From: Gracilaria vermiculophylla
Taxonomy: Eukaryota; Rhodophyta; Florideophyceae; Gracilariales; Gracilariaceae
Assembly: GCA_019155205.2 (NCBI GenBank)
Contig: JAHNZQ020000049.1
Location: 678,107-718,885, forward strand
Direction: 5' to 3'
DNA: 40,779 nucleotides
In this document: in pieces, positions 1,056-38,687 of the stretch
Layout: every line of letters starts with the position of its first letter
Position numbering within the stretch: position 1 is the stretch's first letter
Notes under the pieces: model-generated
What the model saw: only the letters and a program-made list of their open reading frames with translations
Databases searched by the model: none
Told to the model about the DNA's origin: nothing
Translations under genes and position numbers: made by a program

Positions 1056-1136
1056 ACTCGATCCGGGAAAAAGGGATGGGTGTGTAGCCGCCAGAAGAAT
1101 GGTATGCGAAAGGGTCTAGGAGTGTTTTTCATGGGT

Positions 1137-4318: not shown

Positions 4319-4431
4319 GGCGCCGCTGCCCGAGGTGAAGGCGCGTCGCGCGCACGCTCGGGCACCGCGCCCAAGGCGTCGGGAGGTGCTCCTGCTTACA
4401 GCGCGCGCGCCGTTGCATCATGAACGTGGCA

Positions 4432-11698: not shown

Positions 11699-12368
11699 TG
11701 TGGTACTGTCAGCCCTCCTGTCGAGGTAGTAAAGCACAACGTCCGTTAGGAGTTTTTAGTGACTCCAAAGGCGCGTATTCCTAAAGGTGGTCTCCGGTAT
11801 TCGCTGTCGCGAGCCGGGGGAATTCCGAAAGGGATCCGCAAACACCAAGCGGAGGAGAAGGTTCACTGGGCGGGCAATGCTCCTACAGGCGCTGCTATGA
11901 TGCGTCCTGAGGATCGGCGGCTTAGAAACCTGCGTGAATAGACAAGAGACTCCCACCGGAAAATGTAGAAGAAGACTCAAGGGTGCTTGTCTTTACTTCC
12001 CCAGAGGTGGAGCTCTACCGGCAGCTTAAATATCTAGCCGAGAGCCCGCCTCGGCAGGTCGCACTACTGTGCTAATTACCTGCATAAAATATCTAAAATA
12101 AATAATAAATTCTACCGTACCTTAAGGATACTGTAGCGCACGCNNNNNNNNNNNNNNNNNNNNNNNNNNNNNNNNNNNNNNNNNNNNNNNNNNNNNNNNN
12201 NNNNNNNNNNNNNNNNNNNNNNNNNNNNNNNNNNNNNNNNNNNATACTGTAGCGCACGCGGGCAATATTATGCACCACGTGGCCCAGCTAATAAATTACG
12301 AACCCTCCTTAGGAATATTATGCCTTAAGGCCAAACCACCATATTTCCGTAGGAGCCACTGTACTACA
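11699..12368 (-). repeat. Solo LTR A1 of the element-2 family, with 5-bp target duplication
   Basis: On plus it starts TGTGGTAC and ends TACTACA, the same ends as the LTRs of element 2 (28248-28802 and 38132-38687); the sense strand is minus, set by pol of element 2. It is flanked by AGAAT at 11694-11698 and AGAAT at 12369-12373, an exact 5-bp duplication, so it inserted as an LTR element and recombined to a solo LTR. The apparent 670 bp includes a 100-N gap and a repeated 16-mer; without them it is 554 bp, matching the other copies (553, 555 and 556 bp). Confidence 0.9.
12144..12243. other. Assembly gap of exactly 100 N with identical flanks
   Basis: The 16 bases ATACTGTAGCGCACGC stand on both sides of the gap (12128-12143 and 12244-12259). 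The other three LTR copies have this motif once. The gap is most likely a placeholder between two contig ends that overlap by 16 bases. Confidence 0.85.
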
Positions 12369-13245: not shown

Positions 13246-14775
13246 ATGGGACGTGGTAAACCCCTTTCCGATAAAGAGAAATGAATGATATTGGCTGCAA
13301 AGGCCCACTGTTGTTCGCAGAGAGAAATTGCTGACAGTCTCAATCGGTCTCGATCTGTTATGCAGAACTTTTTAAAGAATCCGGGGAAGTACGACATGCG
13401 TTTTAAGGGATCAAACAATAAAATTTTGTCCCTGACAGCCAAAAACGTTTTGCCTCGTGTGGTACTGTCAGCCCTCCTCTCGAGGTAGTAAAGCACAACA
13501 TCCATTAGGATTTTTTGTTGACTCCAGAGGTGCGTGTTCCTAAATGTGGTCTCCGGTATCTGCTGTCACGAGCCGGGGAAATTCTAAAAGGGATCCGCAA
13601 ACACCAAGCGGAGGGGGAGGTTCACTGGGCGGACAATGCTCCTATAGGCGCTGCTATGATGCGACCTGGGAATCGGTGGCTTAGAAACCTGAGTTGATCG
13701 ACGAGAGACTCCAACCCGAAAAGTAGATGAAGACTCAAGGGTGCTTGTCTTTACTTCCCCAGAGGTGGAGCTCAACCGGCAGATTAAGTATCGAGCCGAG
13801 AGACCGCCTCGGAAGGTGTCCCTACTGTAGTAATTACCTGCATATATTAACTAAAATAAATAATAATTCTACCGTCCCTCAAGGATACTGTAGCACACGC
13901 TGGCGGAATTATGCACCACGTGGCCCAGCTATTACAATAAGAGCCCTCCTTAGGAATATTATACCATAGGGCCACACCACCATTTTCTCCTTAGGAGCCA
14001 CTTTACTACACTTCGTGCAGTGTCAAATTCAAACCAGTCTGCTAGAGAGCTTCGAAACTCTCTTTCTTTACCCGTTTCGGTCTGTAAAGTGCAGTAAATT
14101 CTGAGAGAAGACCCGAATTTGATATATAAGAAAATGAAATCCGTAGCAATGAGGACGGAACGCCACAAAAAGAAATGGCGAATTTAGCATCGTCATAAAA
14201 TTACGTACTCATTGGAACAGTGGAAATAAATTATTTTTTCTGATGAGAAAAAGATTAATCTTGATGGTCCAGAAGGTTTTGCTTACTGTTAGCATGGCAA
14301 ACAGAAGAAAGAAGTTGTTTTATCAAAAAAACAAAATGGTGGGGATTCTATAATGTCATGGGGAGCATGTTTGTCCCGTGGTCTAAGCAAGCTAGTGGTT
14401 TGCAAAGAAAGTATGGACTCTAAGAATTATTGCGAGGTATTACTGAAGGAACTATTGCCGTTTGCAGCTGATACATTCAGAGAGTCGTTTACGTTTCAAC
14501 ACGATGGTGCCTCTACACATTGGTCCGTGTACATTACTAAGTGGTTAGAAGACCGCAACGTCGATTTGCTTTCATGGCCGGCAAACTCGCCAGACATCAA
14601 TATTATGAAGAACATTTGGGGGCTATGGGCTCACTGAGTGTACGCCAATCAGCGCCAATTTAAGCACGTTGGAACTTTGTTTGAAGTGGTGATTTATTAA
14701 TGGAACGAGCTAAAAAATGAATACTTAGAAACGCTGTATATGTCTCTACAAGAGCGTTGTATTACAGTGGTGTAA
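13246..14775 (+). pseudogene. Tc1 transposase of element B, split by a solo LTR
   Basis: The ATG at 13246 starts MGRGKPLSDKEK, followed by an in-frame TGA, then a helix-turn-helix region (CSQREIADSLNRSRSVMQNFLKN, given in part) up to the solo LTR at 13458. Beyond it the frame resumes. The first catalytic aspartate region FSDEKKINLDGPEG is present, but the next conserved tryptophan is a TAG stop (about 14289). From 14353 a clean 94-codon run includes FQHDGASTH (second aspartate) and SPDINIMKNIWG. Here the third catalytic residue, normally glutamate in the IEN motif, is lysine. A further stop follows before WNELKNEYL. Clearly dead. Confidence 0.8.
13458..14010 (-). repeat. Solo LTR A2, same family as A1, with near-exact target duplication
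   Basis: 553 bp, starting TGTGGTAC and ending TTACTACA on plus. The flanks are CCTCG (13453-13457) and CTTCG (14011-14015), a 5-bp target duplication with one change. It is closer to A1 than to the LTRs of element 2: A1 and A2 share GGAGCCACT near the end where the other two have GGATCCACT. It interrupts the transposase of element B. Confidence 0.88.
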
Positions 14776-16261: not shown

Positions 16262-17110
16262 CAGTTTGTTTCACAAGTTAAAAACCGTGATAACGGAACT
16301 GTACGGCTAAAAAATCAAGTTTTGATATAACTTCAAATTCAAAAATCGTTTCAAAATCCTAGCATCTTTATCAACTTTAAGTCTCTTTTGGCGACTCAGG
16401 AACTAATGTTTTCTCCTTTACGTTTAACAACGCTAAAAAAGCGTTTTGGGTTCGATTCAATGCAGCCACTAGCAGGTGAAAGTGAATTATCATCTTTGCA
16501 ATTCTTAATACAGTTTCTCACGAAAAAGATTGTGTTAATCTGCCTTCCATGGCCATAAAACATTCTTGATAAAAATCTTTATACAACGACAATGAGATAT
16601 CTGTTTGTTGAGCGCGTTCCCCATTCTATTACCTTAATGTTTGCATATACTTGTCGCCTTGTCTCCCGTTTTTTACTTCTGTATCGGTGTATTGTTCGGC
16701 TGAAAAACAAAAAACGTCCATTAGTCTATAAATAAATGCAAAATTATTTCTCACATTTCGAAATACCAGCCAATAAAATTACAGACTCTCTTGCAGAGTG
16801 ATTCCTCCAAATTTCATGGGGTTCTTTCCTCCCAAAAGTTCAATAAGACGTATAGCAATCAGGACCATCCAAGTTAAAATATGTTTTTGGTCAGAAAGAG
16901 AGACAATTTCTGCTTGGTTTTTCTTGTTCGCTACATTTGCACAACAGATCAGCCTTTTATGTTCAAATTGACCATAAAGAACGCATTCTGAGTTCAATTT
17001 ATTAAATTAAAATAACTGTTACTTATTGATTTAACGCCATACTGTTGACTTTGATACATTGAAGTTTATGTTTTCAGAACTTTTTTCTGCACGAAATGTA
17101 TTTTTGTGGA
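16262..17110 (-). mobile_element. Tc1/mariner element D, fragment
   Basis: The minus strand keeps two conserved transposase blocks. At about 16780-16900 the first catalytic region reads LSDQKH, then LDGPDCY after a frameshift, then the FGRKEP region. At about 16490-16620 is the C-terminal block with a YGHGRQ-like stretch degraded to FMAMEGRLTQ. The helix-turn-helix part is missing or unrecognisable, so the element is truncated. Limits are approximate. Confidence 0.6.
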
Positions 17111-17136
17111 ATAATCAGAGTGTGTACAAACCAAAA

Positions 17137-17826
17137 TGTGTTCGTGTCGACGCGTGGCTAGGGAGCGCGAGGTATACACAATCTAGAAGGTGGGAAAAGG
17201 AAACCTGAGAGGTGTGCGGTAGCACACCCACTGGGGGTGCAAAATAGTGGGTGCGCAGAATGCACCTATACTGGCAGTGATAGAATGCAATGCACGGGTG
17301 CTAGTAGAACCGCCTAGTAACGGACAAACCGTAATGACGGACTGTAGAAACCGAAACGGCGATAGAGTTGTCCAAAAGGTGCTTACCTTTACATCTTGTG
17401 CCGCGGGTGGCTTGCACGGTGAGTATACTCACCGTGCGAGGCCTGCGGGTTGTCCGGGCCGGCCAAGCCACGTGGCTACCAGGAGTTGCACACGAAATGG
17501 ACCTCCGGTACCTTACTGTAAAATCAAAAATCACGTTAGCCATTAACACTACCTGTAGGGAGATCGCACGGCGACACGCAGTGCGTCCAGTTAACAACAC
17601 CCTTGATACATAGTCACGGTATTACTACCATACTCACTATACCACAGACCCGACTCCTACCGACAGGCACGCCCTATGGCTTTTCAGTTCGCCCGCAGCG
17701 GTTACATGGCCATGGTGCATCTGCCAGCAGGTGTACGTTCGCGCATCGCGCGGCAGGGGATGCCGGCTTAACCACCAAGGGACAACAGCGGAAGACGGCG
17801 TCGCTCCTTATCACATCGGTTCATCA
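17137..17826 (-). repeat. Candidate 3' LTR of element 1
   Basis: The stretch begins TGTG and ends TCATCA on plus, immediately beside the polypyrimidine run at 17830-17843, which is a polypurine tract on minus. The distance from this boundary to the antisense-frame ATG (374 bases) is close to that in element 2 (397 bases). No second copy is present for comparison, so the left limit is a guess from composition and the TG rule. Confidence 0.35.
17414..17437. repeat. Perfect 24-bp palindrome inside the candidate LTR
   Basis: Two 12-base arms mirror exactly (GCACGGTGAGTA / TACTCACCGTGC). A 24-bp perfect palindrome is unlikely by chance in an old insertion. It may be a dimer-protein binding site or a hairpin in the LTR transcript. 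Confidence 0.6.
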
Positions 17827-17843: not shown

Positions 17844-19606
17844 TGACGGTGTGGCGTCAGCCATTTTGGTGCTTATCTCGTCGCCACGCCCAACTGTGGC
17901 ACATCCTGAACGGTTTTCCCTTGTTGCGCTGGTTGTCTCAACCGGGCCTCGGGGGCACGAACTAGACGGTCAGCACAGTAGCAGCCCCGGCAAAGCATTC
18001 ACGAGCGGGGAGCGTGTGGGATTGCTGTAGCGGTCCGGGCGTGGCGCTCAGCGACTGTAAGCGCTCGTCCGTGTAGAGGAGAAACCAGTTGATGGGGTTC
18101 ATAGGCCGTGACCACTTGCTGGTGGTCTCGGGTAGTGAGTTGCATGGCAACTGAGGCGCGGCCTCCATCGGGGGAAGGACGTGACCCTTGCCACGCGAGA
18201 TGCTTGCTCCGTTGAGTGGCGCCCGCAATCAAGAAGAATGGGCGGAAAGGGCGCGCAACTTTGATGGTTGGAGCACACTCCGATACTCAGTAGACCTTGT
18301 CGAGATACCCGTTGGTGAAGACAACCTGTGGGTGGCGGATAATGTTTTGCCCGATCTCTTAGGTAATACCAACGTGCCAAGGAGAGGGTATGTAAGCCGG
18401 GGTCCGAAACCAATTTTGCGGTTTCTCCCTTGCATCTCTTCCATGACCATGTCGGGTTGCGGTACGTGAGGCACCTGCGGCATCTCGAAGCCACACACCC
18501 AAAGCCGGTCGCGGTCGTGGGTGCGTTCGTTGACAGTCCCACTGCCGTGTACGTCCGCCGCGGCCGACGTAGCGGCCGGTTACTCTCCTAGTCATAGTAT
18601 CCAAGATCGGTACCTGCTGGTTGCGGGCGCAGGCACTTCCAGTCCGTACGGCGTGACCGCGGCGGAGGTGCAATCGTTGACGTCGGAGGCAACGTCATGG
18701 CGGATCTCGGTGAGATCAAGCGCCCTCGGGGCGCACGTAAAGCATCCCGACTTTGCGTTATGCACCTCTTGGGTGCGGTGTGATAGCTATAGGTTGAAAG
18801 CAGTGCATAATAAGCCACCGTTGCGGGACAAGGAGAGCCAGGGGCGTCCTGGGCGGCAAGCCGGCTTCTCTCGTCGGCTGCAGCATCCACCATTCCGTTT
18901 TTTCATCCCAACCGTCATTCCAAGCAACTTGCCTCACCTTCGGTGTGCACCCGAGCTCCATGATTTCTGAAACATTGTGGATATCATGCACCAGCGTAGC
19001 GAATCGAACTCGGGGTTATCCATTCGTGGGAACCTGGTGGTTCTGGATACTCCATATGATCGGATTCACTGGACGGACCGAAGTCGGTGGGGAGCCGATG
19101 CCACTACTGAGGTACGTATCCGCTCTCGTAACACCGCGGTCTGGACCATGCAGGGTTTCTACTGTATCGCGTTCTTTTCACAGTCTTCCGCGGAGCATAG
19201 TCGCTGGTACATCCCGCGACCCAGTTGGTTGGACAAATTTGAAGTGCCCCAGTTGTTGTGTGTTCCGGACCCACCAGTCTTGGATTACTTCGGAATCTTC
19301 GTGGTCTGGAACTCGAAAGGCTATTATCATACACTGTGGAGCGTCGCCCTGTCAGAGTGGGCCGTTCTAGTGGCCATTTTGGCTCTATTTGCTGCCCAAG
19401 ACGGTATCACGTGGGACAGTCGCTGCTCAGACCAGAACATCAACAACTTTGGGTACCAGCCACCTGGTCAGTTATTTCGGCTCACTCCGGATACCATCGA
19501 CTTTATATACCGCATCGGTTTGGACAAGAAGGTTGACAGTCCCGAATTCACTGTTGATCAGTTGGAGGCTTATCTTACCGCATCGGCAAAGTTCAGGTGG
19601 AATTCC

Positions 19607-19917
19607 TGTTAGAAAACAGTTGAGCTATTTGCGCTATACTCTCTTTGTGACACAGGGCGCACAGTTCACCATTTGAACTATCAACACTCCCCCTCGCCCT
19701 GTACTTCCTTACAGAGCGGGACCTCAAGCTTACAGTAACCACTCTTGATCACTGCTGTACACATGTACAATTTCTCAGGCTAAGTTCACTTCTGGGAATT
19801 GAACCCAGGGTCCTAGCGTATAGCTGGGCCCATAACCTGTTAGAAAACAGTTGAGCTACTTGCGCTATACTCTCTTTGTGACACAGGGCACACAGTTCAC
19901 CATTTGAACTATCAACA
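19607..19917 (-). mobile_element. TRIM: 311-bp miniature LTR element with half-tRNA primer site
   Basis: Two direct 80-bp repeats (19607-19686 and 19838-19917, about 97% alike) start TGTTAG and end ATCAACA on plus. ATTCC flanks the unit on both sides (19602-19606, 19918-19922), an exact 5-bp target duplication. On minus, the base after the upstream LTR begins GGTTATGGGCCCAGC (19823-19837), complementary to the anticodon arm of initiator tRNA-Met. This is the same internal 'half-tRNA' primer site as Drosophila copia. Before the downstream LTR is a polypurine run GGGCGAGGGGGAG (19687-19699). The 151-bp interior cannot code, so the element must have moved with proteins of a copia-type partner. 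It interrupts the antisense frame of element 1 and so is younger. Confidence 0.9.
19792..19808 (-). other. tRNA T-arm/B-box-like hairpin inside the TRIM
   Basis: The minus strand reads CTGGGTTCAATTCCCAG, a perfect 5-bp stem with a 7-base loop fitting the TpsiC arm and Pol III B box. TAGCTCAACTG, an A-box-like string, lies 42 bases upstream within the LTR end. Cloverleaf pairing of the D and anticodon arms fails, so I do not call a tRNA gene. Confidence 0.5.
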
Positions 19918-20961
19918 ATTCCAACCAGTGCTGGGAAGCGTTAGACTTTGAGAGGTCATCCGTCACTTTGCAGCGCAGGTTTCATGGAGAGGTACCATCT
20001 GGTGAGGGCGCGCCACCGTTTTCTCATGAGGTGGACAATCCTGAGGAAGCTACTCCAATGGTGGCGCCTCCGGCTACCTCCCAAGCGGGTGCGAGTGTTC
20101 CGAGGATCCCGGTACCGTATTCGGTTCCACCGCCTCCCTTGGTGGGACCGTCATAGCCGCTGTCGTGGAACAGTTTAACCGTCGGTGGAGGGGAGCCATT
20201 GACTGCTTCGGACATCACTGGTGTGTTTCTGCTCATTAAGCGAGCATGCGCTACGTGGTTGAACCGTATTGGGGTTAGGAACTTGCGCAAGTCGCTCGCC
20301 TTCTCGGAGCACCTGATCCCTCGACACGCCGAGTATGTTGCTTCGTTAAAGCCTTTGGTGAGGTTTTGGAATGAGTGCCAGGCTGGGATGTATCACACTG
20401 TGACTGGGCAGGGGTCAAGCCCGAGTGAGAGCATGGAGCACACCGATACGGCTGGCGATCTACTACTTGGGAAGACGATGGGGCCCTTCTTGGGGTGCCA
20501 CGTTGTGTAACCCGTCGGTAATGATGCTGAGCTGCCATCGGTGCCTGTCACTCCCGCGGCTGTGTCTGGGTCTTCCGGGGGTCTCCCCTCGTTGCTGCCC
20601 AGTTCGCAGGGATCAAAACCGCATTGCTTCTCGGCTGGAAACTCCACGGCACGGACACCCTCTGGGCATCCCGGCACGGGGTCCAATCCCATGGCAGAAG
20701 ACATTCTTTATTAGGGGTCTTCACCTGTCTCGGTAGAGAGGGCCCCACATTGGCTGCAAATAAACCTTTTTTCTCCTTTCGGTAATCTTTGTCTTCTTCT
20801 ATTTTGCACCCTTGGGGTGTTCTGATAACCGTGTTGGGTGGTGTGAGCCAATTGCAGCTGGCTTCCCCTTCCCCATCCTTGGCCGACATGTCCCAAATGC
20901 GGCTTTAACCATCAAGCGCTAGCGATTTCTCGCCTTTGCGCTGGTACCGTACACGGAAGTT

Positions 20962-23400
20962 TCACAGACCGTAGCTGGGAGGCTCCATCGTATCGTGCTT
21001 GGGGCTCCGATCATACCACCAGATGCGGTCTCGTAGGTCGGTAGGGCTTAGGTCGTGGCCAAAGATGGTATCGATGGGGTATTGAGTCAGCTCTGGGACG
21101 AGATGGCCCATGTGGGCGTCCGCGTGGGGTGGAGAGCTCCATCCCGTACTGCTGAGTGAAACCGCAGCGGCAGGCAGCGCAACGAATACGGTCGCTGTGT
21201 CGGTGCCCGAAGGGCCGGACACGTGTCGAGATGGGTCTACCGAGATGCTGTCGACGAAGACGGTAGATTCCAACCCATCGATAAGTACCGTTACGGTTTG
21301 ATCGTTCGTGGTCACAACTCGATAGGGTCCAAAGTAATGGGGAAGGAGGTTTGACTGGATGTCGCGGTTGACATCGATATCGTCCTTTTGTTCCGCCATG
21401 GTCGGTCGACGACCACCGGGTGGTACGTCGATAAAAACGTATTCATCCTTATTCACCGTCATGGGGTTGGTAACCGATTGATCATGTTGGGCCTTGGAAC
21501 GGCGCTGGGCTTCCGTCAAGTGACTTATGGATGCCCGGAGGGTTAAACGAAGGTTTTAGAGGATGTAGGGTATTTTCTGGGCCAGCGTGAGCGCCTCCGG
21601 CGCTACCATGTTGCCGGGCTCCGGTTCAAAGGCAATACCATGAGGTGTTCGAGACAGGACGAGATCGAAGGGTGCGGTCTGGGTAGAGCGGTGAACCTGG
21701 AGGTTGAACGCGTATTTCAAGAGCTGCAAAAACTTGGCACGACCCGTCTGGTGGTCTTCGACATAGTGCCTTAAGCGAGCCACTAGGGTCTTGTTAAACC
21801 GTTCCACCTGTCCATTGGTTTGGGGGTGGTAGGTTATTGTGAGGTAGTGTGTCACAACAATCAGGGTGCACACCACTTTGAAGAACTTTGACGCCAGACT
21901 GAAACCGTTATCGGTCAGAAGGTAGATCGGGGCGCCATATGGGTACACCCAGCGGGTTCGGAAAATCTCAGCCAGTATCGCGGTTGTCTTTCGTTTTAAT
22001 GGGATGGCCCGCGTGAGTGTCGTGAACCGGCTAGTGATAACCATGACGAACTGATAACCATTCTCGGTTTTCGGAAGGGGCCCCAGGATATTGATAGCGG
22101 CGAGCTCTAGGAGTTCCGCCGCTGGGAAGAGTTGAAGATACTTTGGGTGCTTTTGGAGACCATCCCTGGTTTTCACTCACAAGGCGCACCGAGCCACGTA
22201 GGAGTAGACGTCGTGGGCCATGAGGGGCCAGCAGAATGACTTTCGTAATGTGTAGTACATCCTCGTGGCTTTGAGGTTGCCAGCAAACCATGGTAATGAG
22301 ACAGATACATCAATTTGTGGCGTAGAGATGCCGGCACCTCCTTCTGTCGGAAGCCATCTAAAGCAGGGTAGCGGGCGGTGTACCCCTGGTGGACAAGATC
22401 GAACGGCGATCCTTTCAGTCCCAATTGGTCGAGTAGGGTCTTGCAGTATGCATCAGTGCTTTGGAACTGCAATAACTCCTCGCGGGTGACCGGCGCGGTG
22501 TTATTCTCTTCTGTAGCGTTCACGATAGATAGTTTTTGATTTGCCTGGATGGTTTCCCGGTTCCGGGTCTCTTTCAGCTCCTTTCCATCACCCGTTTGTT
22601 TCCGTTGGAAGGTTAAGCAGGGAACATTGTCCCCAGCTGGCTGGTATTCAAGCCCCTCGGTATTCAGGCAAGATAGGGCGTCTGCGACATTATGCTTGAT
22701 GCCCGGAAGGTATTGGACCTTGTAGTCGAGCTCCATTAGCCGTACTTACCGTCAGGCTAATCATCCGGAGTCGATAGAAAGTCCAAGTATCCACCTCAGT
22801 GAGTCATTGTCCAATCCGAGCGTGAAACGTTCCCCGTAAAGGTAAGGTCGTAACATGAGCACATCCCTATACCACGGCTAGGCATTTGTTCTCGGTATTG
22901 TAACAGTTCTGCTTGGCGTTTTTGAGCGCTCGGCTGCAATAACCAATGGGTAGTTTCGCTCCGTCGTCCTGCTCCTGCATCAGGTAGCAACAAATTTGGG
23001 CATCTGATGCATCTGTTTCAAAGATGTACGGTCGGCCGCTTGGGGGTAGTGCCAGGATTCGAGGTGCTAGGAGCGCGGCTTTCAATTTCTGGAACGCTGC
23101 CACCTCGTCGGTGTCCAGTAAATAGAACCATGACGTTTTCTTTTATTGTGACTGTCGGTTCAAGGGGGCCGCAATAGTTGCGAATCTCTTGATGAACCTT
23201 CGGTAGACATTACACAGACCTATAAAAGACTGGGAATCGGTCTGGTATCGTGGGAGTCTCGCTTGGCTTACGTCTCGAATGTTGTGAGGGGACACCTCCA
23301 GCCTTCCGGAAAACCAAAGAGTCCTTTAATTCTGCCACTTTTCGTGCGTTACGATCGCGGGATCTGCTTCGAAAAACTTGAAATCTTCGTAGACTGATCC
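20962..23400 (-). pseudogene. Ty3/gypsy pol, element 1: RT end, RNase H, integrase, chromodomain
   Basis: Reading down the minus strand: about 23300-23150 has RT-connection motifs (SGRLEVSPHN and GLCNVYRRFI). 23103-22867 is the RNase H start (FETDASDAQICCYL, PIGYCSRAL). 22736 onward has the RNase H end YKVQYLPGIKHNVADALS and then an H2C2 integrase zinc-finger region (LSHYHGLLA). 22176-21556 is the integrase core; the first catalytic aspartate is replaced by Asn (NILGPLP), while LTDNG and NGQVERFN (second Asp, Glu) remain. 21519-20962 has the integrase C-terminus and a chromodomain ending WWYDRSPKHDTMEPP. Frameshifts separate the blocks. No protease, RT catalytic core or gag remains. The frame converges with the antisense ORF and does not overlap it. 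Confidence 0.88.
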
Positions 23401-23500
23401 CAATGGCCAGATATATTTTTTTGTTATGTCGGCATTCTAAGCTGTAGTCTTGCCAGAAACATACCCCGTGAGTCTCTATGGGCGTAGCAGTGCTCATCGG

Positions 23501-23880
23501 TTCTATGAAGCTGGATACCGTATCCTGCAGTCAAGGATAGACATAGAGCGCTCTTTAAGCATCTCTCTCTTGGAGAACGTGACCAAACTCGGGCGAAGAT
23601 TTTCTCAGTATCTTCTCTAAAAAAATTTCAGAAGAAATTCACTTTCTAAAACAAGATGTGAAATCCGTTCTAGGAGGCTCAAATGTAACAAGCGGATGTT
23701 CGTCGGAGTGCTGAAGATTTCTGAAAGACATGAAGACCCTATTTCTTCGTGTGACTCATCGTAGCGAAAATTTTGATACTCTTTTTTGAGAAGATTAGCA
23801 CCCTTTAAGTGCTAGAAAATTCGAGAAAGTTGCTACTAATCATCTTTCTAAAATTTTCCGCGGTTGTAAAAAGAAAGCTT
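23501..23880. other. Junction between elements 1 and 3
   Basis: AT-rich DNA after the truncated 5' end of element 1. No motif recognised; probably the unrecognisable 5' part of element 3. Confidence 0.35.
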
Positions 23881-26460
23881 ACAGCTGTTTTTATTCGTCG
23901 GATTCCGACTTGGGCAGTAGTGGCTCGGTTGAAACGAGTAGTTCTTCGCTCAGAGAATCAGTAGGTAATGCGAAACGTTGCCGTGGCGAATCTGCTCAGG
24001 TCAGAACTTCCTATCTCTCTTACGATGTACTCCGGATGTAAAAGAAAGGGCGTAAAAATCTCGGCTCAGAAGAGTTGAAGACAACAAACCTTCCTTACAA
24101 AATTCTTTGTTATAACTCCATTATCGGGAAAACTATTTATAATTTAATCGCACAGCGAGAGGATCATGTCGTGTCAAGGACTAAATCAAAAGGATACATA
24201 ACCACTCTTTTGATTTATTCCTTTACAAGATGGATCCTGGCCTTTCTGTGTTGAATATGGACGCTTTAACTCGGGGTCCGTCAAGTACATGGATCCGATT
24301 CAACGTATGGACGAATACAAAATTTTCTTGAGAGAAGCTACAGTGCTCACCACACTCGATTCCAATCCCAAAATACTAACAGATTTCCAATAGGCACCTA
24401 GATTAAGATAAGACCTATGCTTTTTGTCACCAAAAATTGTACCATTTTAAGCATATGTTTTACGGTATGACGAACGCGCTCGCATCATCTCAGTGGCCTG
24501 TAGACATTCTCCACACGAGTTTCGGGCTTTAGCGCTTTTTTTCTTTACCAGGACGATATTATCGTACTCTCCGATAGTTTTCACGGGCATGTCTCTCATG
24601 CCCGAGATATTCTCCCAGTTGTACAAGATGTGTGAACAACGCTACATCTGAAGGGAAATGGTCTCTGTACCGACTCGGAGAAGTACTTGAGTCAAATCAG
24701 CTGCCTCAGAAAAAACTTCTCATTGATAGATTTGGATTATAGTCTTTCAGAAAGGTTACACTTCCGACTACTAAATTAATGCTAAGATCCGTTTCAAGAC
24801 TCAAAAATGTTTTGCGTCAATTTGTTCCGAACTTTACGGATCCCGCTACTCCACTTGTTGAAATCCATAAATATGAATACCAAGAACATCGGAAGCATTC
24901 GGAGACGCTAAAGCGCAGCCTCTGTCCCTCTCATTGAGCCTACTACACTTTCGCCGATCCTGGCGTTACCGTAGTCATAAGTACCTTTCGTATTAGCCAC
25001 TGACTGTAGAGCATAAAAAGTTCTATGCGCTTCACGAAAAACGTCGTTAGATGGTCAAAAACATCCAAACGGATAGTTTTCACGGTCGTTTAATGTTCAT
25101 AAAGGTAAGTACCCATTGACTCCACAAATATTTTTTGCTGTAGTCTGAGCTGTAAGCACTATACTCCTAAACAAAAAAATTGGGTAGCTAATTTAAGATG
25201 TCCAACGGTTTCTTAGCTCTTTGATGGCTTCTCCCAACTCCCGGTGTGTCGGATTGACTGCAGCAGTGGCATCTCCGATGTTCAAAATTCTATTTTATTG
25301 ACCTATACAAAATGAGAGCCTTGCACACGCACGTTGATATGCAGTACTGCTCAGGAACTGCCTCAGAAATGAAAGGGGAGGAAAATTTGATCTCACCGTG
25401 ATTTGAGGCAAGAGGAAAGATCCGAAAGACAGTCCAAATGGCATCACGGATGAACTCTGGAATGAAATCATCATGGCTGATTTTCTGCTCCTACGGAGAG
25501 TTGTTGTACACATGCGTCTCTTCAAGGGTCCACTCGGGAGAAAATTCAGGACCCACATTGTACGTAATTTGGCGCTCGTTTCAATGGAATACTAAGCAAC
25601 TCTTTTCTCCAGAACGACCAAGTATAACTCATCAAGTTGGTATCTAAAACTTCTCAGGTAGAAGTAACTCACTCGTTTCAACAGTGCATACTATACATGT
25701 CGCATTATGTAAAGCTCTAAGCTTATGCTGGAGGCGGAACGTTATATCTTAACCTCTGCAATGTAATTTAATAGCCTCCGATTGTGTACGATTGCTGTGC
25801 AACTCGTCTTTTGTGTACTGAGTGCTCAAAGAATAACATGGAGTTATGTAACGACTACAAAGCGCTATCCTTGCTCTCAGCTTAAGATTCCCTAGACTAC
25901 TTAGCAATTGATATCTTGAGAAAGGTCATTTAAAAAAGCAGAAAGATCCCCCTCTGTTGGAGATAACAGAAAGTTCCTCAACTTTAATGAGAGCTGTGCA
26001 GTTAAATTGAGTCACCTTCGCCGCTTTTCCGCAGGCATTTGTAAACCATCGGAGTTTCGTATATTTCCCACCGGTGTATTTGCAATCCGGCAACGAATCT
26101 GAATTTGCATCAAGGTTCATTCAAGATAGTTGCAGAATTCTTGAAATCAAAAATATGTTTTCTACAACCTATCACCTACAGTTTAACGGACAGGTGGAAC
26201 GATTTAATCGTGCTATGTTTAACGAGCTGTGTTCTAATGTTCCGGATCATCCTATGTATTGATATTTGTATATCGACGACATTGCATATGTGTAAAACAC
26301 CCAAATTCATCGTTCTACGAATTCATACCCGTTGTTCTTTGTTCTCTTTATTAAATTTCAGAAAGAAACAGGAACATTTGATGGAACAAAAAGAAACATC
26401 GCCAGCTCTGGCTTTGATTTACATGGAGGTGCCTCGACCACAACTTATATAGTGGTTCAG
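23881..26460 (+). pseudogene. Ty3/gypsy pol, element 3, AT-rich and heavily decayed
   Basis: The plus strand keeps scattered gypsy blocks in three frames. About 24350-24480 has TTLDSNPK, DKTYAF and FKHMFYGMTNALASSQW (RT fingers/palm). The RT catalytic box is YQDD at 24546-24557, followed by DIIVLSDSF. About 24830-25000 is the RT/RNase H junction. 25895-26460 is integrase: the first aspartate stands in LAIDIL, the second is lost (QSGN for SDNG), the glutamate is kept in NGQVERFN, and NTQIHRST follows. Stops are frequent. Composition (about 40% GC) differs from elements 1 and 2 (over 50%), so it is older or a different lineage. No LTRs were found. Confidence 0.8.
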
Positions 26461-26479
26461 TCGCGCAAACGTGGTCAGA

Positions 26480-26970
26480 GCAGAAAATTCACTACAAAGC
26501 AGAGGCGCTTAATATTTCCAACCATAATCTAAAATGACCTAGATGTGCTGGCCACAATTCATTATTGCTTACAACAGCAAGGCACAACAAGAAATTACAG
26601 TTACATGCACTCCCACGAGCATGACAGTGCACAAATTCACAAATTCTGCGTGTCACTGTAAACCGCCTATATGCGCCAGTGTCTCCCAAGTCACTTCACT
26701 CCACGTATGCACTCAGGCAGCAATCCAGGCTTCCATCAACACATTTAGCCAGCAATGTATTGAACTAGTATTGGCGTTCGCTAACAAGGAACATTTGGTT
26801 TTCCGTGACAGCAAAGGCATTTGCACCAACACTCTAACGGCAAGTGGTTTTCGTGGCAATCGACGTTCAACCGAGATAATTTTCCTTTCCATCTCTGAAG
26901 TTGCATCATGGTTCTTACAAACAATAGTTGACCAAAAGTATACTTGTCACCCATATTCCAATGAGTAAAT
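26480..26970 (-). pseudogene. Probable Ty1/copia fragment: gag end, protease, pre-integrase
   Basis: On minus, a Cys/His cluster (CLCCHGKPNVPC, about 26800) resembles a gag zinc knuckle. LGDTGAYRRF (about 26680) resembles the copia protease active site, and ELWPAHLGHF (about 26550) the pre-integrase LWHxRLGH motif. The three are in the right order. A 141-codon plus-strand frame covers the same bases (26543-26968) but shows no motif. The match is by eye and weak individually; the order is the main support. Confidence 0.45.
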
Positions 26971-27449
26971 TGCGAGCGACAAACAAAAGTAGCTTTCCTT
27001 CAAAGATACTCAAACCCTGTGCATCGGATAAAATAAGGAAATTTATTGCTCGGTTGTAATAATTTCTTTAATCCCGGCGCATAATAGCTTCAAAAGAACT
27101 CGTATATTGCAGATAGATGCTTCAATGTTATCGCTATCGCTCTCGCCACTATTGCCATCGAAATGAACGGTGAGCATGAGTGATTCTCATGTAGACGTGT
27201 TACACCGGCCTTCATCCCATATCGCATTTAAACCACTTCAATTTTTGCATCAACGAATATTTCAGTAACTTCGCGCATGGAAAATCTATTTAGTTAACTG
27301 TCAGTGCCATCTCAATCTGCTCGAGATTTATGGGACTCAGCGAAGCCTTTCAATCTATTGACGCTGCCAGTCCGCTCCGATACCCAGCTTCAGAGATGAT
27401 ATGCTGTTTTCAACCCAACCATTTGCGGTTCTCTCCGCCCCCGGATCTA
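26971..27449. other. Unassigned stretch before the antisense-ORF fragment
   Basis: AT-rich to 27300, then more balanced sequence. The frame from 27330 leads into the ATG at 27450 but shows no motif. Possibly leader DNA of a lost Ty3/gypsy copy. Confidence 0.35.
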
Positions 27450-28050
27450 ATGGACTTCAATCACTATCCTGAGAGGGAGCAGGGCCTGCCATCCGCCTCG
27501 CAATTAAAACCTACTAGTTTCAGGCAGGATCGCTCGAGAGAGTGGCGTCGGGTAGACGTGGAACTTTATGACGCTGGAAAACGAAATATTTGGCGACTTA
27601 CTGTTTAATGGAACCACGGATGGAAGTGTATATGCCTTTTTCAGAAAAATGAAGCCGTATCTTGCCTCGAGCGTAGCTGTGCTATACAACTATCACCAGG
27701 CGACCAAAAAGTTTTCAGCATACCCTTTTCTGTTACCATAATCCCACGTTGGTAGTGCAAATGAATTAACTGAAGAACCGGGAATAGTTTTGGTTGCTCA
27801 TGAGACGAAGAACTTACCCGAGATTATGACGTTTGACAAAACCGTAATTGATTGGAAGCGTGTGCACGCGCACGAGATATAAGCGCTAAATACAGCCTGC
27901 AAAGCCACTTATGGTCAATAAGGCCCCACAATCACGGGCATCAGGGAATATTATGGAAATACTAATGCTTTTTTGGCACCCGTACAGTGTACGCGCATCA
28001 CTTACGAGACTTTTGTCATTTTCGTCCAAGCATGATACATAGTACGTACT
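27450..28050 (+). pseudogene. Partial third copy of the antisense extra ORF
   Basis: An ATG at 27450 begins a plus-strand frame whose blocks align in order with elements 1 and 2. RRVDVELYDAG..NIWRL matches YSVDLVEIPVG..NLWVA of element 1. After a frameshift, DLLFNGTTDGSVY...KPYL matches DLLGNTNV..GYV...KPIL. LPEIMTFD...KRVHAHEI (to 27883) matches VPEVVWND...RLHAFCAHI of element 2. GPTITG then matches APITVG. The copy has a frameshift and stops, and fades toward the LTR of element 2 at 28248. Each match is short, but the order is kept. Its pol is absent. Confidence 0.45.
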
Positions 28051-28247
28051 GTGCGCCCAATCGTCGTATAATGATAATTCCATGATCGCACATTTTGCCT
28101 TCTTGTTCAAGATTCAGTATCGAGTTTTCCTTTTTGACAAGCTTAGTCACCCCTGACATTGGGGAAACTATCCTATGAAGAGTCGACGTCTTCAGCCAAA
28201 ACAACTCCCCAAGAAAATTAAAATTGAATGAAAAGAGTCGATACGAC

Positions 28248-28802
28248 TGTGGTACCTGCAGTTTTTCTTTCGAGGTAGGAGCACACGACGTCCGTTAGGA
28301 ATTTTTGATCACTCCAAAAGCGATAGTTCGTAAAGATGGTCTCCGCTAGTCACGATCACAAGCCGATTGAATTCTGAAAGGGGGTCCGCAAGCACCAAGC
28401 GGGGAAGGGGGTTTACTAGGCGGACAATGCTCCCTTAGGCGATGCTATGAGGCAACCTGGAGATCGGCGGCTTAGGAACCTGAATGCGTTAGACAGGAGT
28501 CTACAACCAGAAAAAGTAGAAGAAGACTCATTGGCATTTGGTTTGCTTCCTCGAGATGTGGAGCTCAACCAGCAGATTAACTACCGTACCGGAAGCCCTC
28601 CTCGACAGTTCTCGCTACTGTCATAATTATCCACACCAATTAAATCTAGTTTATCTACATTCTATAATTTTTCAGAAGTACTGTAGCGCACGTGGGCCAA
28701 AGAACACAACAAACGGTTCAGGTAATAAAGTACAAACTCTTCTTAGGAATATAAAGTCATAAATACACACGACAATGTCAACTTAGGATCCACTGTGCTA
28801 CA
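28248..28802 (-). repeat. 3' LTR of element 2 (LTR A3)
   Basis: 555 bp, TGTGGTAC ... GTGCTACA on plus. It shares the GGATCCACTG block and the TTCAGAAGTAC block with the other LTR of element 2 and is clearly related to the solo LTRs A1 and A2. Confidence 0.88.
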
Positions 28803-28804
28803 TA

Positions 28805-28815
28805 CCCCCGTTCCT
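28805..28815 (-). other. Polypurine tract of element 2
   Basis: The minus strand reads AGGAACGGGGG, then TA, then the 3' LTR beginning TGTAGC. Position and composition fit plus-strand priming. Confidence 0.6.
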
Positions 28816-29198
28816 GAATTGACCCACGTCCCCAAGGTGCATCTTTCCAAAGCTCGGTCCTGAAGCGGGTCCTAACGAGGTTGATGTCAGAGTGGCCTCC
28901 CGCGATGTCACAGATACTCTTTTCCAGTAATTACTCCGTATTTCCCCGTTTCCGTGTGGCTTACCCACTGCGGGCTCGTGCATCTGCGTTGCGGCGGTTC
29001 CAGGCTCTTAGCTTTTTCTCAAGTTAGACTTTTAACTCCTTCTTGGCGTACACCGCTGGTGTTAGAGCGCCTGGCATTCCGTGGTCATCCAGGTCCCCTG
29101 TCGGGGAGCTCCCAGCAGTAGCGTAGGCTTGTCCATTCTTATTGGAGACAAAACAGTCATACTTTCCGCTTTTGCCCTGCCGTCGGCCTTCACTCGCC

Positions 29199-31289
29199 AT
29201 GAACCCGTTCCCCACTAAGGTGCCCGTCTCTTTTCCTGTATCTCTTCGTTCGTCCTCTCAATTCAATCCTGGCCAGCGTCGTCACATGACGGCTTTCTGC
29301 GAGGGTTTCGTAACGCCGGGGCTCTCCCCTGGTGATATTTCGTTCAACTTCTCTGGTGCTAACACACATTCTGTCTTCATCTTGCCAACTACGTACACCT
29401 TCGGAATGCCTTCTCCGGTCCATACTTTAACGATTCCGTCCAATCCTGAGGTGTATCACACCTCCACTGCTGCGCCATTCCACCCGTAAAAGAATTTCGA
29501 CCATCGTGCTACACGGATCTTCGTGCCTTTTCATGACAGGCGCTCTGGACTCTCTTGCCTCAGGAAGGACAATATTCACTATTTCGGACTGTACCTTCAG
29601 TCGACCAGGTTCCGTGACGTACCAGAGGTCGTGTGGAACGATCAGAAGCGGAACCGGCTGCACGCGTTTTGCGCTCACATACTTCACACTCCGGTGCACA
29701 GTGACAACGCTCCGATCACGGTGGGACACTGTGACAGCCCTTACCGCAGGTGTGCCGAACAGTGCGAGATACAGGCTTGACGCCAACTACTCCTCCACAA
29801 CAAAAGCTCACACCAGCGAGCGGGGCATCCCGGATGCATCGCCGGTGGACGCTCTGCCCTTGCGGTGCTGCCCTTGAATCCCTCTTACGATCGAATCTTC
29901 TAGTTCAACTGCAATCGATGGGGGACGCACCTTACGGATGAGACCCGAGTGCGGAACGCCTTCGGATACTTCTATTTTCGGCGCAACGCGGAGCTTCATG
30001 AAATGCTTTCCAGGCAGCGTCCGAAGTATTCCCGCAAGGTGAGCGACTCCGAGAGGCACCATTGGGTCTTTCTGCACCTCTGTGTGGCCATGCCCATCTC
30101 GGTCGTGTATCACACCCCCGAGGTTCTAGATCTACATTACTCCTTAGAACGGTTCATCATGTTGATCCTCTCGACGGAATTCGCGGTCGGCATCCTAGTG
30201 GCTTATATCCAGACAGCGGACGAGAGCTTCACTTCCTACACTCAATGCCGGGACGGTCGCCTCTACTGAGATTCTTCGTCTTAGCCAACCGCCGGACGTT
30301 TGCTCTCCTTATCGGTGCCAATTGTCATGGTTCTACACTTTTTTGGAATGGAAAATGGGATCAAGTGCACCCCGTGGAGCGAGTCCGAGACGGAGAAACT
30401 GCTAAATTACAACCTAAAGGTTGTGGGTAATGAGACTTCGGGCTACCTTTGGTATAAGTAGGGCAAAGAAAAGTTTCACCTCATTGTGCATATTCCCAAT
30501 GGAGACGATGACGGGCGAGCCTACACGGCCTGTTCCCGCTTTGCCACTTATCTGTTTTTGCAGGTGCAACGGCTACGTATCCCCGATTATGATCAAATGG
30601 ATGAGAGTATGGCGATCCGCACCCCTCTTCCGTTACCCGCTCCATCCCAGGACGGGGATGCGTCTTCTGAGAATGGGACGCAGCCTCCATCATCGATGCC
30701 GGATCCTCCGGCAGTGGTGGCCGAGGTCTCCGATATCGAAGAGGACAAGATTACTCCCGTCCCGACTCCTTCGGCCCCGGTGGTGCATCGCTAACCACTC
30801 AGCTTCCTGGGATCGGTTATTAAGCCTTTCCTGAGAAGCGTACCAGTTCCTGTGCCACCCCCCCATCTGGTATCGGCTGTTCCATCCTTGGCCCTGCCCA
30901 TCTCCGCGGCATTGCCTGCAGAATCCGTTCGCGAGCCTACTGTCTCAGCCGGTCCGCCGTTTGCGCCTTCTTCTGTGGCAGTTTTTGTTCCGTTGACGCA
31001 GATTGCCGCTTTTGGTGTACCCTCGGACGGGCTAACCTCTGGTGATCTTGGTACTGCCTTCCAGGGATGGGTGCATGCTTGCCCGGTGACGGGCCGTCCT
31101 GCTCCTACTTTTCCTGTGGAGGCTCTGTGCAAGCCTAGCATCTTGTTACTATAGCTCCATAAGGCCCGGGAAGACCGAGCCTCGATGGCGGCAATCAAGG
31201 AGAACCTGGCGGAGGTACTTGAGAGCCAAGCGCTAACGGGGAAGGTTCGCCTGCAAGGGGAGCATGCGACGCGGTTTGGTGGCCTGTAG
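29199..31289 (+). pseudogene. Long antisense extra ORF of element 2 (about 697 codons)
   Basis: One plus-strand frame runs from an ATG at 29199 to 31289 and ends about 295 bases before the converging chromodomain of pol. In-frame stops are at 29487, 29778, 29901, 30267, 30282, 30459, 30792 and 31152; otherwise the frame never shifts. Blocks shared in order with element 1: PEVVWND, CDSPYR (29730), YDRI (29886), RWG (29916), RPKY, a hydrophobic stretch with SVVYH and VGILVAYIQTAD, GRLLSL (30294) with a following GMENG...PWSESETEKLL. The middle ends in an acidic Pro-rich tail (about 30600-30790). A Val/Pro/Ser-rich part and a short coiled helix (REDRASMAAIKENLAEVLES, 20 residues) close it. No known domain, signal peptide or zinc finger is seen. 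It is probably a retrotransposon accessory protein. Confidence 0.65.
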
Positions 31290-31582
31290 GCGTGAGATAC
31301 CCTGGCGATGGTAGTTAGTCCACGGAAGTGACGGAGTAAAATGTTCTTGAATTGGAGCAGAAGCTCCTTGAACGGTAATTTCGATACAAGTGGGCTCTGC
31401 CGGAGCGCCCAGGGACAAGAGGTGTCGCCGCGTAAGCGAACAACAAGAAGAAAACGGCGGTCTTGAGGCAAAAAGGAAACTCCAGGTGAGGTATGGATAT
31501 CAAAGAACGAAAACAAACTCCAGTTTGGGCTTCTGCTTTCATTCCTAAACAGAAACGCATTTTTGGAAATGTCTTTCTGCAC

Positions 31583-34500
31583 CAGATTGGCGTGGTATCT
31601 CCTGATGAAGTTCTTATGGATGTGTCCCGGAGGTTCTTCCGTGTCATGCTTTGCACTGTACAAGTACCATCGTGCGTGGTACAGTATCCCTTCAGGGTTT
31701 TCAATTTGAGAGAAAATATGGTCTACTGCATACAGGAAATCACATTGAGAAGTCATGATGGCGTCTGGAGCTTCCATCAATAGTTCAACGAGAGGTGTGA
31801 CGAGTTTTTTAGTATCCATTGGTGTCGTCACTCCTGAGATGGTCGGCGGAGGAATTTCCGCTTGTATCCCCTGAGGTGCGGTGACGGGCATTCCTGAGGG
31901 GCTAGGCATCGGAACTTTCGTCACTCGATCACGGGAAACGACGTCTTGAAGCCCGTCTACCTCGGTGACGACAGTGTTTCCGTAGGTTTCCAGGACTTTG
32001 TAAGGCCCCAAGGTATTCGGCTCTAATTTGCATGTGATGTCCGGCGGTTCATTAGATTTCTCTTTAGGTTTGTCGAGCAAAACCACGTCGCCTTCTTTCA
32101 TGTGACGGCTTTCTTTCAACTTGCGGTCAAAATCCGGTTTTCATCTTCTCTGCAGGGCGTTGAGTCCCTTCTTTTGAGAGAAAGGGTGCGTTTTCATAGC
32201 GCCTTAAGATAGATTGTTTGCTCGCGTCGCTGTTGGTACCTGTGGTTTATCCGTCGCGTGCGCAGTGGCACGTGCCACATTGAAGACATTAGGCGGGATT
32301 CAGGAGTGCACCAGATTGAAAGGAGCGGTTTCTGTAGAGCGGTGCACCTGCAGTCTGTTTGCATACGTGACCGGGCCCATGTATGCGTCCCAATACCTTC
32401 TGGTGATCCGCGACGCAGTGTTTCAAACTTAAGGCGATGGTTTTGTTAAACCTTTCCGCGTGTCCGTTAGTCTGGGTGTGACATGGAGTGGTAAACAACT
32501 GCTTCCTCCTCTGCATTCCGGAGATAGGGCTGAAGAGCTTCGCCGTAAACTGAGTTCTTTTGTCAGTAAATGGATACAACGAGATCTTATATGGGTAAAC
32601 CCAATTCTCTAGAAATGTGTCGGCAACTACTGCTAAAGTGGAGCTCCTGAGGGTATAGGCGCGCGTGACCTTCGAGAACCGATCGTTGATCATGAGAATA
32701 AATCCATGCCCTCTCTTCATCTTGAATAAAGGGCGCAAAATGCCCATTTCCGCGAGTTTCAAAGGTCCCGAAGGCGAGAACAAGGTGACCGGTGTTCAGT
32801 GTATGCGGATATTTTCCCACGCGGCGGCGCATGAATGACAGTCCCCCACCATTAGAAAGGCTTCCATAGTCATGTTTGGCCAATTAAACGCCATGTTCAT
32901 GGTAAAATATATGCAAGATCCACTGGAGTACCTGGCAAGGCGACGAAAGTGCGAGAGATACAGCATTATCGCCAGAAAGCTCATCGGAACCACCTTTTGA
33001 AGAGCTCCACCCAGGGGAACGCGGCGTACAAGTACGTCGTAGCGGTCCACATGAAATGGTGACGTTAGACTACGGACAGTGGCGGGGCCCTCCTTGCAGT
33101 ACGCATCCATACTCTTCTCCTTCAAGGACTCCACTATCGTGATGAGGAGAACTTCTTTCTCCCTCTCGACAAGGGCCATCACCTCAAAGAGCCCACTAAA
33201 CATGCCTCTGGGTTCACAACATTTCAAGAACACCCTTTCGGATATTTCCTTCCTGTCCGCGTCCTCGATGAATAGACACGGAATAGAGTCCTCCGAAGGT
33301 GTTTTGTATTCTCCCTCGGTAATGATTTGCGACAGTGCATCCACTCCCTGGTTTTTTATTCCAGGACAGTAGACAATGTCATATTCGAACTCCAGGAGGC
33401 GTGGCCTCCAACTCCCCAGGCGACCAGAAGCATCCGTCAAAGACGGTATCGAATTCAATGGTGTGGGGTTCGGCCTCAAAATGAAACGCACACCGTCCAG
33501 GTCCGGGCGTAAAAATCAACCTCGCCCATACGATTGCGAGACATTCGCGCTCCGATGTAGAATAATTCCGTTTGGTCGGAGGAAGGCTGCGAGTCCAGTA
33601 TCCTAAAGGTTGAAGTCCACTTTCCGGTTCTTGCTGCGGGAGGGTAAATACGACCTGACACGTACAGACGGCTGTGTACAGCACCATTCGGCCGTTTCGC
33701 TTCTGGAGAACTTAAATCGGTGGCTCCATTAGTCTCTTTTTCAAAGTGTGAAAGTCTTCGAACTATTTTCCCGTTTAGGAGGCCCCTTGCATAGGTATGT
33801 GTTTCTCCAAGAAGCGATTTAAAGTCGGCGCAATACAGGAGAAGTTCGGAACAAACCTCCGAAAAACATTATACAACCCCAGGAAGGAGCGGAGAATCTT
33901 CTGGCATGTGGGAGGGTGAGCTTCCTTGATGGCGTCCTGAGTCTTTGTGGAAACATGTAGGCGGCCGTGGAACACAACATTCACTACGTAATTCACCGAG
34001 TACTTGAAAATGAAACACTTATGCAGCTACATGGTGAGTCTAACATCCTTCAGGAGTTGGAGCACGTGCTTGGCATGCATAAAATGTTTCTCCACGCGGC
34101 GGGAGCATAAAATGACATCTTCAATATACATCACATCGCGTACTGCTACTTCATCTTTGAAAGGATTATATCCACCGCTCTATGGAACGTGGCGCGTGCA
34201 TTATTTAATCCAAATGGTATTCTTAGGAATCTGAAAATTCCATAGTATGAAGTGAACCTTGTCTTTTCCTTATAGGGATCATCCATCTCGATGTGCCAGT
34301 AATCACTATTGGCGTCCAGCGTAGGGAACATGGAAGAATTACCTAAGGAGTCAATTCATTAATCCATATGCGATTTCGGGTACGAAGGGCGTATCGTCAC
34401 CTCGTTGAGGCATCTATAGTCGATGAAGAACTTCAACGGGCCATATTTCTTCTTCATAAACATCATTGGAGAACCCCGTTCGGAATTTAAGGGCCCAGTA

Positions 34501-38131: not shown

Positions 38132-38687
38132 TGTGGTACGTTCGATTCTTCTTTTGAGGTGGTAGTGCGCAACTACCTTAAGGAGTTTTTAATGACTCCA
38201 ACGGCGCAGGTTCCTAAATGTAGTCTGCGGTAATCACGGTCACGAGCCGAGGGTATCTTAAAAAGGAGTTTCGCAAGCACCAAGCGGACAAGAGGTTTCA
38301 TTGGGTGAACAATGCCCCTACGGGCGCTGCTCTGAGGTGATCTACGGATCGGTGGCATAGAAACCTTGAGGCGTTCGACAAGAGTCCCCAGCCGGAAGAA
38401 GTAGAGCAAGAATTAAGGACGCCTGGTTTTCTTCCCCCAGAGCTGGAGCTCAACCGGCAGATTAAATACCTTGCCGGGAGCCCGCCTCGACAGGTCTCGC
38501 TACTGTAAAAATTCCCCGCACAAATTAAATCTAATATATCTAAACTCTACAATTCCTCAGAAGTACCGTAGCACACGTGGGCCGAGTAATACACCACGCG
38601 GCTCAGTTAATAAAATACGAGCCCTCCTTAGGAATATCCCGTCATAAAGCCACACGACAATATCACCTTAGGATCCACTGTATTAAA
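38132..38687 (-). repeat. 5' LTR of element 2 (LTR A4)
   Basis: 556 bp, starting TGTGGTAC on plus; the other end has decayed to TATTAAA where the family has TACTACA. It is clearly but distantly similar to A3 (roughly 70-80% by eye), so the insertion is old. Confidence 0.85.

What the first reader, a model, noticed from the sequence alone, without database searches (positions are those of the whole stretch)
18200..31289. Two Ty3/gypsy chromodomain elements share a previously unrecognised ~700-codon antisense ORF
Seen: in element 1 (18200-20714, plus) and element 2 (29199-31289, plus) a long frame lies opposite to pol, between the chromodomain end and the 3' LTR. Lengths are 733 codons (after removing the TRIM) and 697. 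Motifs are collinear: CDS-YR, YDRI followed ten residues later by RWG in both, then a G-x-L-x-x-L block 127 or 126 codons on, then acidic and Pro-rich tails. Both end 250-300 bases before the converging pol. Two decayed copies keeping the same order and spacing implies past selection on the protein. Known: some plant Tat-lineage gypsy elements have antisense extra ORFs in this place; I know of none for chromodomain elements. Inference: an accessory protein of a new lineage.
Basis: partly seen in the sequence, partly recalled or inferred. Interest (0 to 1): 0.88.

Follow-up and report, generated by a model that had tools for sequence, protein, structure and literature searches.

The report
Antisense accessory gene in algal retrotransposons
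Two decayed jumping genes in this window, most likely from a red alga, carry the same extra protein gene written backwards against their other genes; it was once under selection, matched no known protein family in our searches, and resembles in position an unexplained backward gene of some plant retrotransposons.

Summary
The antisense frame is real. Element 2 (29199-31289) is a decayed copy of a 696-aa ORF matched at 63 scored places of this genome; element 1 carries a diverged relative. Between the two window copies only a ~230-codon core aligns (20% identity, E 4e-6; 28%, E 1e-19 against an intact copy). The 'CDS-YR' motif is not the homologous block.

Among 20 family-A copies dN/dS is 0.37 in this frame (core 0.22; pol-end control 0.37), 1.0-1.3 in four other frames, 0.44 in the fifth. 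Shared changes pile up at third positions, private ones do not: a protein selected in source elements, then neutral decay. Of 100 pol ends, 42 have a listed convergent copy, none same-strand.

A derivative lacking the core has multiplied (34 of 40 scored hits span its junction), so the protein acts in trans or is dispensable.

The host is most likely a red alga. One metagenomic fragment is the only outside relative found; Pfam, PDB and fold searches gave nothing of weight. Antisense ORFs in this slot are known from plant non-chromodomain Tat/Retand elements; this looks like a separate version in chromodomain elements. Function (trans-acting regulator) is inferred.

The parts
17105..17647 (-). 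3' LTR of element 1 (family B); no partner 5' LTR found in the window
   Evidence: genome hits that begin near query 206 and end near 660 or 747, repeated across the genome (40 of 87 candidates scored); self-comparison of the window shows no pair
18200..19606 (+). element 1 antisense ORF, first piece (469 codons, 2 stops); core homology at about 18911-19603
19607..19917 (+). TRIM-like insert splitting the ORF, 87-nt direct repeats, 5-bp target duplication 19602-19606 / 19918-19922
19923..20714 (+). element 1 antisense ORF, second piece (Pro-rich tail, 2 internal stops); matches family-B copies, no significant match to family A
20962..22745 (-). decayed end of element 1 pol (integrase rve, below cut-off, in 21556-22176)
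28248..28796 (-). 3' LTR of element 2
   Evidence: 75.3% identical to 38132-38681, one gap
29199..31289 (+). element 2 antisense ORF (family A, 697 codons with stop, 8 internal stops); core homology to element 1 at about 29718-30419
30791..32140 (-). decayed end of element 2 pol, open frame with sub-threshold SH3_Tf2-1 and chromo matches; its open frame runs on over the end of the antisense ORF
38132..38681 (-). 5' LTR of element 2

Best explanation
It is a protein-coding accessory gene of a group of Ty3/gypsy chromodomain retrotransposons, placed antisense between pol and the 3' LTR, in what is most likely a red alga. Shown by computation: two homologous families (A, with element 2; B, with element 1); at least one intact ORF of 696 aa; past purifying selection on the protein in family A; convergent placement, typically about 250 bases from pol; an amplified derivative that lacks the core. 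Inferred: the gene is transcribed from a promoter between the ORF and the 3' LTR or in that LTR. Its product has a constrained domain (residues ~100-430), a Pro-rich linker and a helical C-terminus. It acts in trans as a regulator of the element family, for example in LTR transcription or relief from silencing, and core-deleted elements use protein made by full ones.
For: Genome searches: 150 of 150 scored, of 352 candidates, E <= 3.2e-7; 63 of 63 scored, of 1115 candidates, 67-80% aa identity besides the query, most over nearly the full length; 4 of 63 without a stop in the matched part, one of them the query. Selection: dN 0.100, dS 0.295, mean ratio 0.37 in 20 copies; other frames 1.15, 1.30, 1.00, 0.44, 1.31. 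Core 0.22, Pro-rich part 0.62, C-terminus 0.38, pol-end control in 18 copies 0.37. In 19 copies shared variable sites by codon position are 184/167/320 (p 2e-14), private ones 258/206/201 (p 0.011, excess at position 1). The best 12 of 41 copies chosen by DNA give 0.54 in frame against 0.91 and 1.01. Placement: 42 of 100 pol ends have a listed convergent copy within 3 kb, 0 same-strand. Trans action or dispensability. Outside relative: P0121, E 6.9e-14, 48% over 128 aa.
Against: No transcript data, so antisense transcription is unproven. No family, fold or solved structure matches, so the regulatory role rests on analogy and the deletion derivative, and the derivative may instead mean that the protein is dispensable. 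Within family B selection is weak (0.69 against 0.76 and 0.98). The 20 copies were the best protein hits, which favours open frames; only one of them is intact from ATG to stop. One antisense frame also gives 0.44 because it shares third positions, but it carries 16-26 stops per copy.
Confidence: 0.6

Rival explanations
1. Structural accessory protein: the ORF makes a second capsid-like or particle protein (or an envelope-like one), not a regulator, and core-deleted elements are packaged by it.
For: Size, the Pro-rich linker and the helical C-terminus (residues 651-708, ten-residue means of pLDDT 73-91) would suit an assembling protein; the deletion derivative also fits a protein supplied in trans.
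Against: No similarity to the element's own gag region (best E 0.83); no gag, env or capsid family among the 7 weak Pfam matches of 44 members; no fold match of weight, though the models are poor.
Confidence: 0.15
2. Accessory gene that is now dispensable: it had a past role, but the core-deleted lineage shows that transposition does not need it in cis or in trans.
For: 34 of 40 scored hits (query's own place included) span one core-deletion junction, at 72-94% identity to the query; of six unpaired pol ends examined, all keep aORF remnants and five show large deletions.
Against: Family-A copies show dN/dS 0.37, and 0.22 in the core; non-autonomous partners that live off full elements would look the same. 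That derivatives keep a working pol is not shown: the long pol frame listed beside L061 is mostly N.
Confidence: 0.2
3. Not a protein: a cis-acting or antisense-RNA region in which the open frame is a by-product of the opposite strand or of base composition.
For: One pol-strand frame shows dN/dS 0.44; antisense non-coding transcripts of retroelements are known (PMC7264820, passages seen).
Against: That pol-strand frame has 16-26 stops per copy, the ORF frame 1-7. Families A and B align in the ORF frame at E 1e-19, the mirror frame only at 3e-5. ATG kept in 18 of 20 copies.
Confidence: 0.03

Closest known systems
Antisense additional ORFs of plant Tat/Retand Ty3/gypsy elements (Grande gene23, RIRE2, Retand)
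   Same: Long ORF between pol and 3' LTR, antisense to gag-pol, kept in many copies, function unknown (PMC7264820 and PMC11963269, passages seen).
   Different: Retand is a non-chromovirus lineage, and 97% of recently active Retand clusters encode the TRP28 domain PF04195, said to be known only from flowering plants (PMC11963269). Here the elements carry a chromodomain, and PF04195 matches no listed aORF place.
Ty3/gypsy chromoviruses
   Same: LTRs, aspartic protease, RT, RNase H, integrase, chromodomain at the integrase C-terminus. Chromoviruses are said to occur in red algae (PMC3605345, abstract start seen in the listing).
   Different: In the passages and listings seen here no antisense ORF in chromodomain elements was described.
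Dasheng / RIRE2 non-autonomous and autonomous pair of rice (recalled; papers only listed)
   Same: An internally deleted element multiplies beside a full one that bears an antisense ORF.
   Different: Here the derivatives lack the aORF core and still have a pol end; whether their pol works is not known.
HTLV antisense genes such as HBZ (named in PMC11963269)
   Same: Protein gene antisense to the other viral genes.
   Different: No sequence relation tested; retrovirus, not an algal retrotransposon.

Membership tests
Ty3/gypsy chromovirus | Two LTRs flanking a gag-PR-RT-RH-INT body | tested here: met
   LTR pair 90.7% identical around L031; PF13975 24.4 bits (below cut-off 28.2), RVT_1 95.8 bits, PF17917 30.5 bits, Integrase_H2C2 17 bits (below cut-off) in L056; rve 36.7 bits in another copy, L037. 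The gag region has no Pfam match
Ty3/gypsy chromovirus | Chromodomain at the integrase C-terminus | tested here: met
   PF00385 26.6 bits against cut-off 25.1 in L037; below cut-off in L018 (17.5), L049 (16.8) and window element 2 (11.7); none in the L012, L016 and element 1 pieces nor in the L031 pol end
Ty3/gypsy chromovirus | RT falls in the chromovirus clade of a tree | not tested
   RT only compared by search; the species-named hits among the best 120 are red algal
Plant Tat/Retand elements with antisense ORF | Antisense ORF over 600 bp between pol and 3' LTR | tested here: met
   five of six sampled pol ends without a listed partner have large deletions in it
Plant Tat/Retand elements with antisense ORF | Non-chromovirus element | tested here: not met
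   chromodomain in pol; definition from PMC11963269
Plant Tat/Retand elements with antisense ORF | TRP28 domain (PF04195) in the antisense protein | tested here: not met
   whole-genome search: 2 sub-threshold matches, neither at a listed aORF place; 0 of 44 members match it at E <= 10. The control genomes gave no match over the cut-off, so there was no positive control
Antisense regulatory protein (works like) | Antisense transcript and nuclear or DNA-binding protein | not testable with these tools
   no expression data; models too poor to infer

The most novel reading that the evidence does not exclude
Red-algal chromodomain retrotransposons evolved, independently of plant Tat elements, a self-encoded antisense trans-acting factor (for example an anti-silencing or LTR-activating protein) of a new protein family. 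A core-deleted sister lineage has long parasitised it, so that the antisense slot before the 3' LTR is a recurrent evolutionary solution across deep eukaryote branches.
Probability: 0.3. Interest if true: 0.75.

Novelty: new variant of a known kind. Interest (0 to 1): 0.58.

Why it matters
The antisense ORFs of plant Tat elements have no known function. An apparently separate case in chromodomain elements of a distant lineage, with a large copy number, at least one intact frame, measurable constraint and a natural core-deleted counterpart, gives a comparative system for asking what such genes do and whether they act in trans.

Tried and rejected

Literature: searches listed no paper whose title or abstract start tells of an antisense ORF in chromodomain elements or in red algae. 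Only open-licence papers are held; passages of three papers were seen, the rest only as listings.

Full report
What was checked. The window is part of a 44.8-Mb, 27-contig genome. Pol fragments lie on the minus strand to their right. Element 2 is bounded by LTRs 28248-28796 and 38132-38681 (75.3%, one gap). Element 1 has a 3' LTR at 17105-17647, recognised because many genome hits share those ends, and no 5' LTR was found in the window.

Do the two ORFs match each other? Of all 36 frame pairs between element 2 and the first piece of element 1, the claimed pair is best: 20% identity over el.2 codons 174-407 and el.1 codons 238-464, E 4e-6. The second piece of element 1 has no significant match. 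An intact family-A ORF matches element 1 at 28%, E 1e-19, and element 2 at 56% over 659 codons. So one core of about 230 codons is shared; the tails differ in sequence but are alike in being Pro-rich. Family-B tails match one another at 58-60% (three pieces).

Genome-wide family. A search with the element-1 core scored 150 places out of 352 candidates, all at E <= 3.2e-7. A search with the 708-codon frame of L031 scored 63 of 1115 candidates, at 67-80% identity besides the query, most over nearly the full length; 4 of 63 lack any stop in the matched part, including the query. DNA searches gave 16 matches for element 1 and 41 for element 2. The union of the listed hits makes 175 distinct places. 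A Met at codon 13 of that frame is ATG in 18 of 20 copies, giving a 696-aa protein, the same length as element 2's frame. Of these 20 copies two have no internal stop: L036 (the same place as L031), which keeps the ATG, and L043, which has lost it. So one copy was verified intact from ATG to stop.

Selection. In 20 family-A copies mean dN is 0.100 and dS 0.295, mean ratio 0.37 (range 0.19-0.72). The other frames give 1.15, 1.30, 1.00, 0.44 and 1.31; the 0.44 frame shares third positions and has 16-26 stops per copy, against 1-7 in the ORF frame. By region (19 copies, L053 left out as incomplete) the ratio is 0.44 in residues 1-100, 0.22 in 101-430, 0.62 in 431-635 and 0.38 in 636-708; the pol end of 18 copies gives 0.37. 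Variable sites shared by copies favour third positions (184/167/320, p 2e-14), private ones do not (258/206/201, p 0.011, with the excess at position 1). The picture is a protein under constraint in the source elements, then neutral decay of each copy. These 20 copies were the best protein hits and so favour open frames. The best 12 of 41 copies chosen by DNA similarity to element 2 give 0.54 against 0.91 and 1.01 in the other two frames of that strand. Within family B (8 of 16 matches) the signal is weak (0.69 against 0.76 and 0.98).

Placement. The element around L031 has LTRs 90.7% identical and spans 10.5 kb, with protease, RT, RNase H and integrase signatures in order, the protease and integrase ones below cut-off. 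The integrase end carries a chromodomain over the Pfam cut-off in L037 and below it in L018, L049 and element 2; the L012, L016 and element 1 pieces and the L031 pol end had none. Of 100 pol-end hits, 42 have a listed aORF hit within 3 kb, all convergent; none has one on the same strand. In 29 pairs with copies the gap is 97-432 bases, 20 of them 245-253.

A core-deleted lineage. Six of the 58 pol ends without a listed partner were fetched. L060 holds a whole aORF that changes frame once. L059, L061 and L062 lack about residues 48-455, L063 lacks about 113-493, and L058 keeps only residues 658-705. A 191-base query across the L061 junction gave 40 scored hits of 166 candidates; 34 span the junction (the query's own place included), the others at 72-94% identity. 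Only L059, L061 and L062 of these were looked at in sequence. The breakpoints fall at an 11-base imperfect direct repeat 1.2 kb apart in L031 (read by eye). The most constrained part of the protein is therefore missing from a lineage that multiplied. Either the protein is supplied in trans, or it is not needed. Whether the derivatives have a working pol is not known: the long frame listed beside L061 is mostly N.

Host and outside relatives. The only species-named RT relatives among the best 120 of 1088 are Agarophyton chilense and Chondrus crispus; ten light-harvesting (PF00504) matches lie in the genome. The host is therefore most likely a red alga; no species was established. The full ORF found no protein at E <= 1 among 7991 candidates. 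A core alignment found one among 7257, P0121, a 133-aa metagenomic protein, E 6.9e-14, 48% identical over residues 302-429. The family thus probably exists outside this assembly. Pfam, PDB sequences and IMG/VR (close relatives only) gave no relative.

Comparison with the known. [quoted passage not shown] Recently active Retand elements are non-chromoviruses, and 97% of the clusters have the TRP28 domain (PMC11963269, passages). Here the position is the same; chromodomain and protein family differ. No paper on an antisense ORF in chromodomain elements showed in the listings; only open-licence papers are held.

Mechanism. Shown: coding, constraint, convergent placement, an amplified core-deleted lineage. 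Inferred: a promoter near the 3' LTR, and a trans-acting regulatory role by analogy with plant and retroviral antisense genes. The structural and dispensable-gene rivals remain open.

Noticed in passing
window 19602-19922: TRIM-like 311-bp insert with 87-nt direct repeats and a 5-bp target duplication; 40 of 279 candidates scored genome-wide, 45 matches, 89-95% identity besides itself, some in overlapping tandem arrays, so far younger than the element it sits in. Its middle holds a tRNA B-box-like stretch (by eye; ARAGORN finds no tRNA).
   Followed up: partly
L001-L020; window 28248-28796 with 38132-38681: Very few indels for the amount of substitution: 5.9 and 6.5 gap events per pair against 374 and 579 substitutions, and one gap in a noncoding LTR pair at 75% identity. 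Transition/transversion about 1.3; no single change type dominates in family A. A host with a strong substitution-only decay?
   Followed up: partly
window 153-1115 (-): ORF of 320 aa with a NAM-associated domain (PF14303, 34.6 bits).
   Followed up: no
window 2636-4417 (-): Open frame of 593 aa, a sugar-transporter-like MFS protein.
   Followed up: no
window 11699-12368 and 13458-14011: Two further LTR-like copies of the element 2 family, 88.5% identical to each other; a 100-base N run lies in the first.
   Followed up: no
L058, L063: Further, different deletions of the aORF that again spare its end next to pol; this end may hold a cis signal.
   Followed up: no
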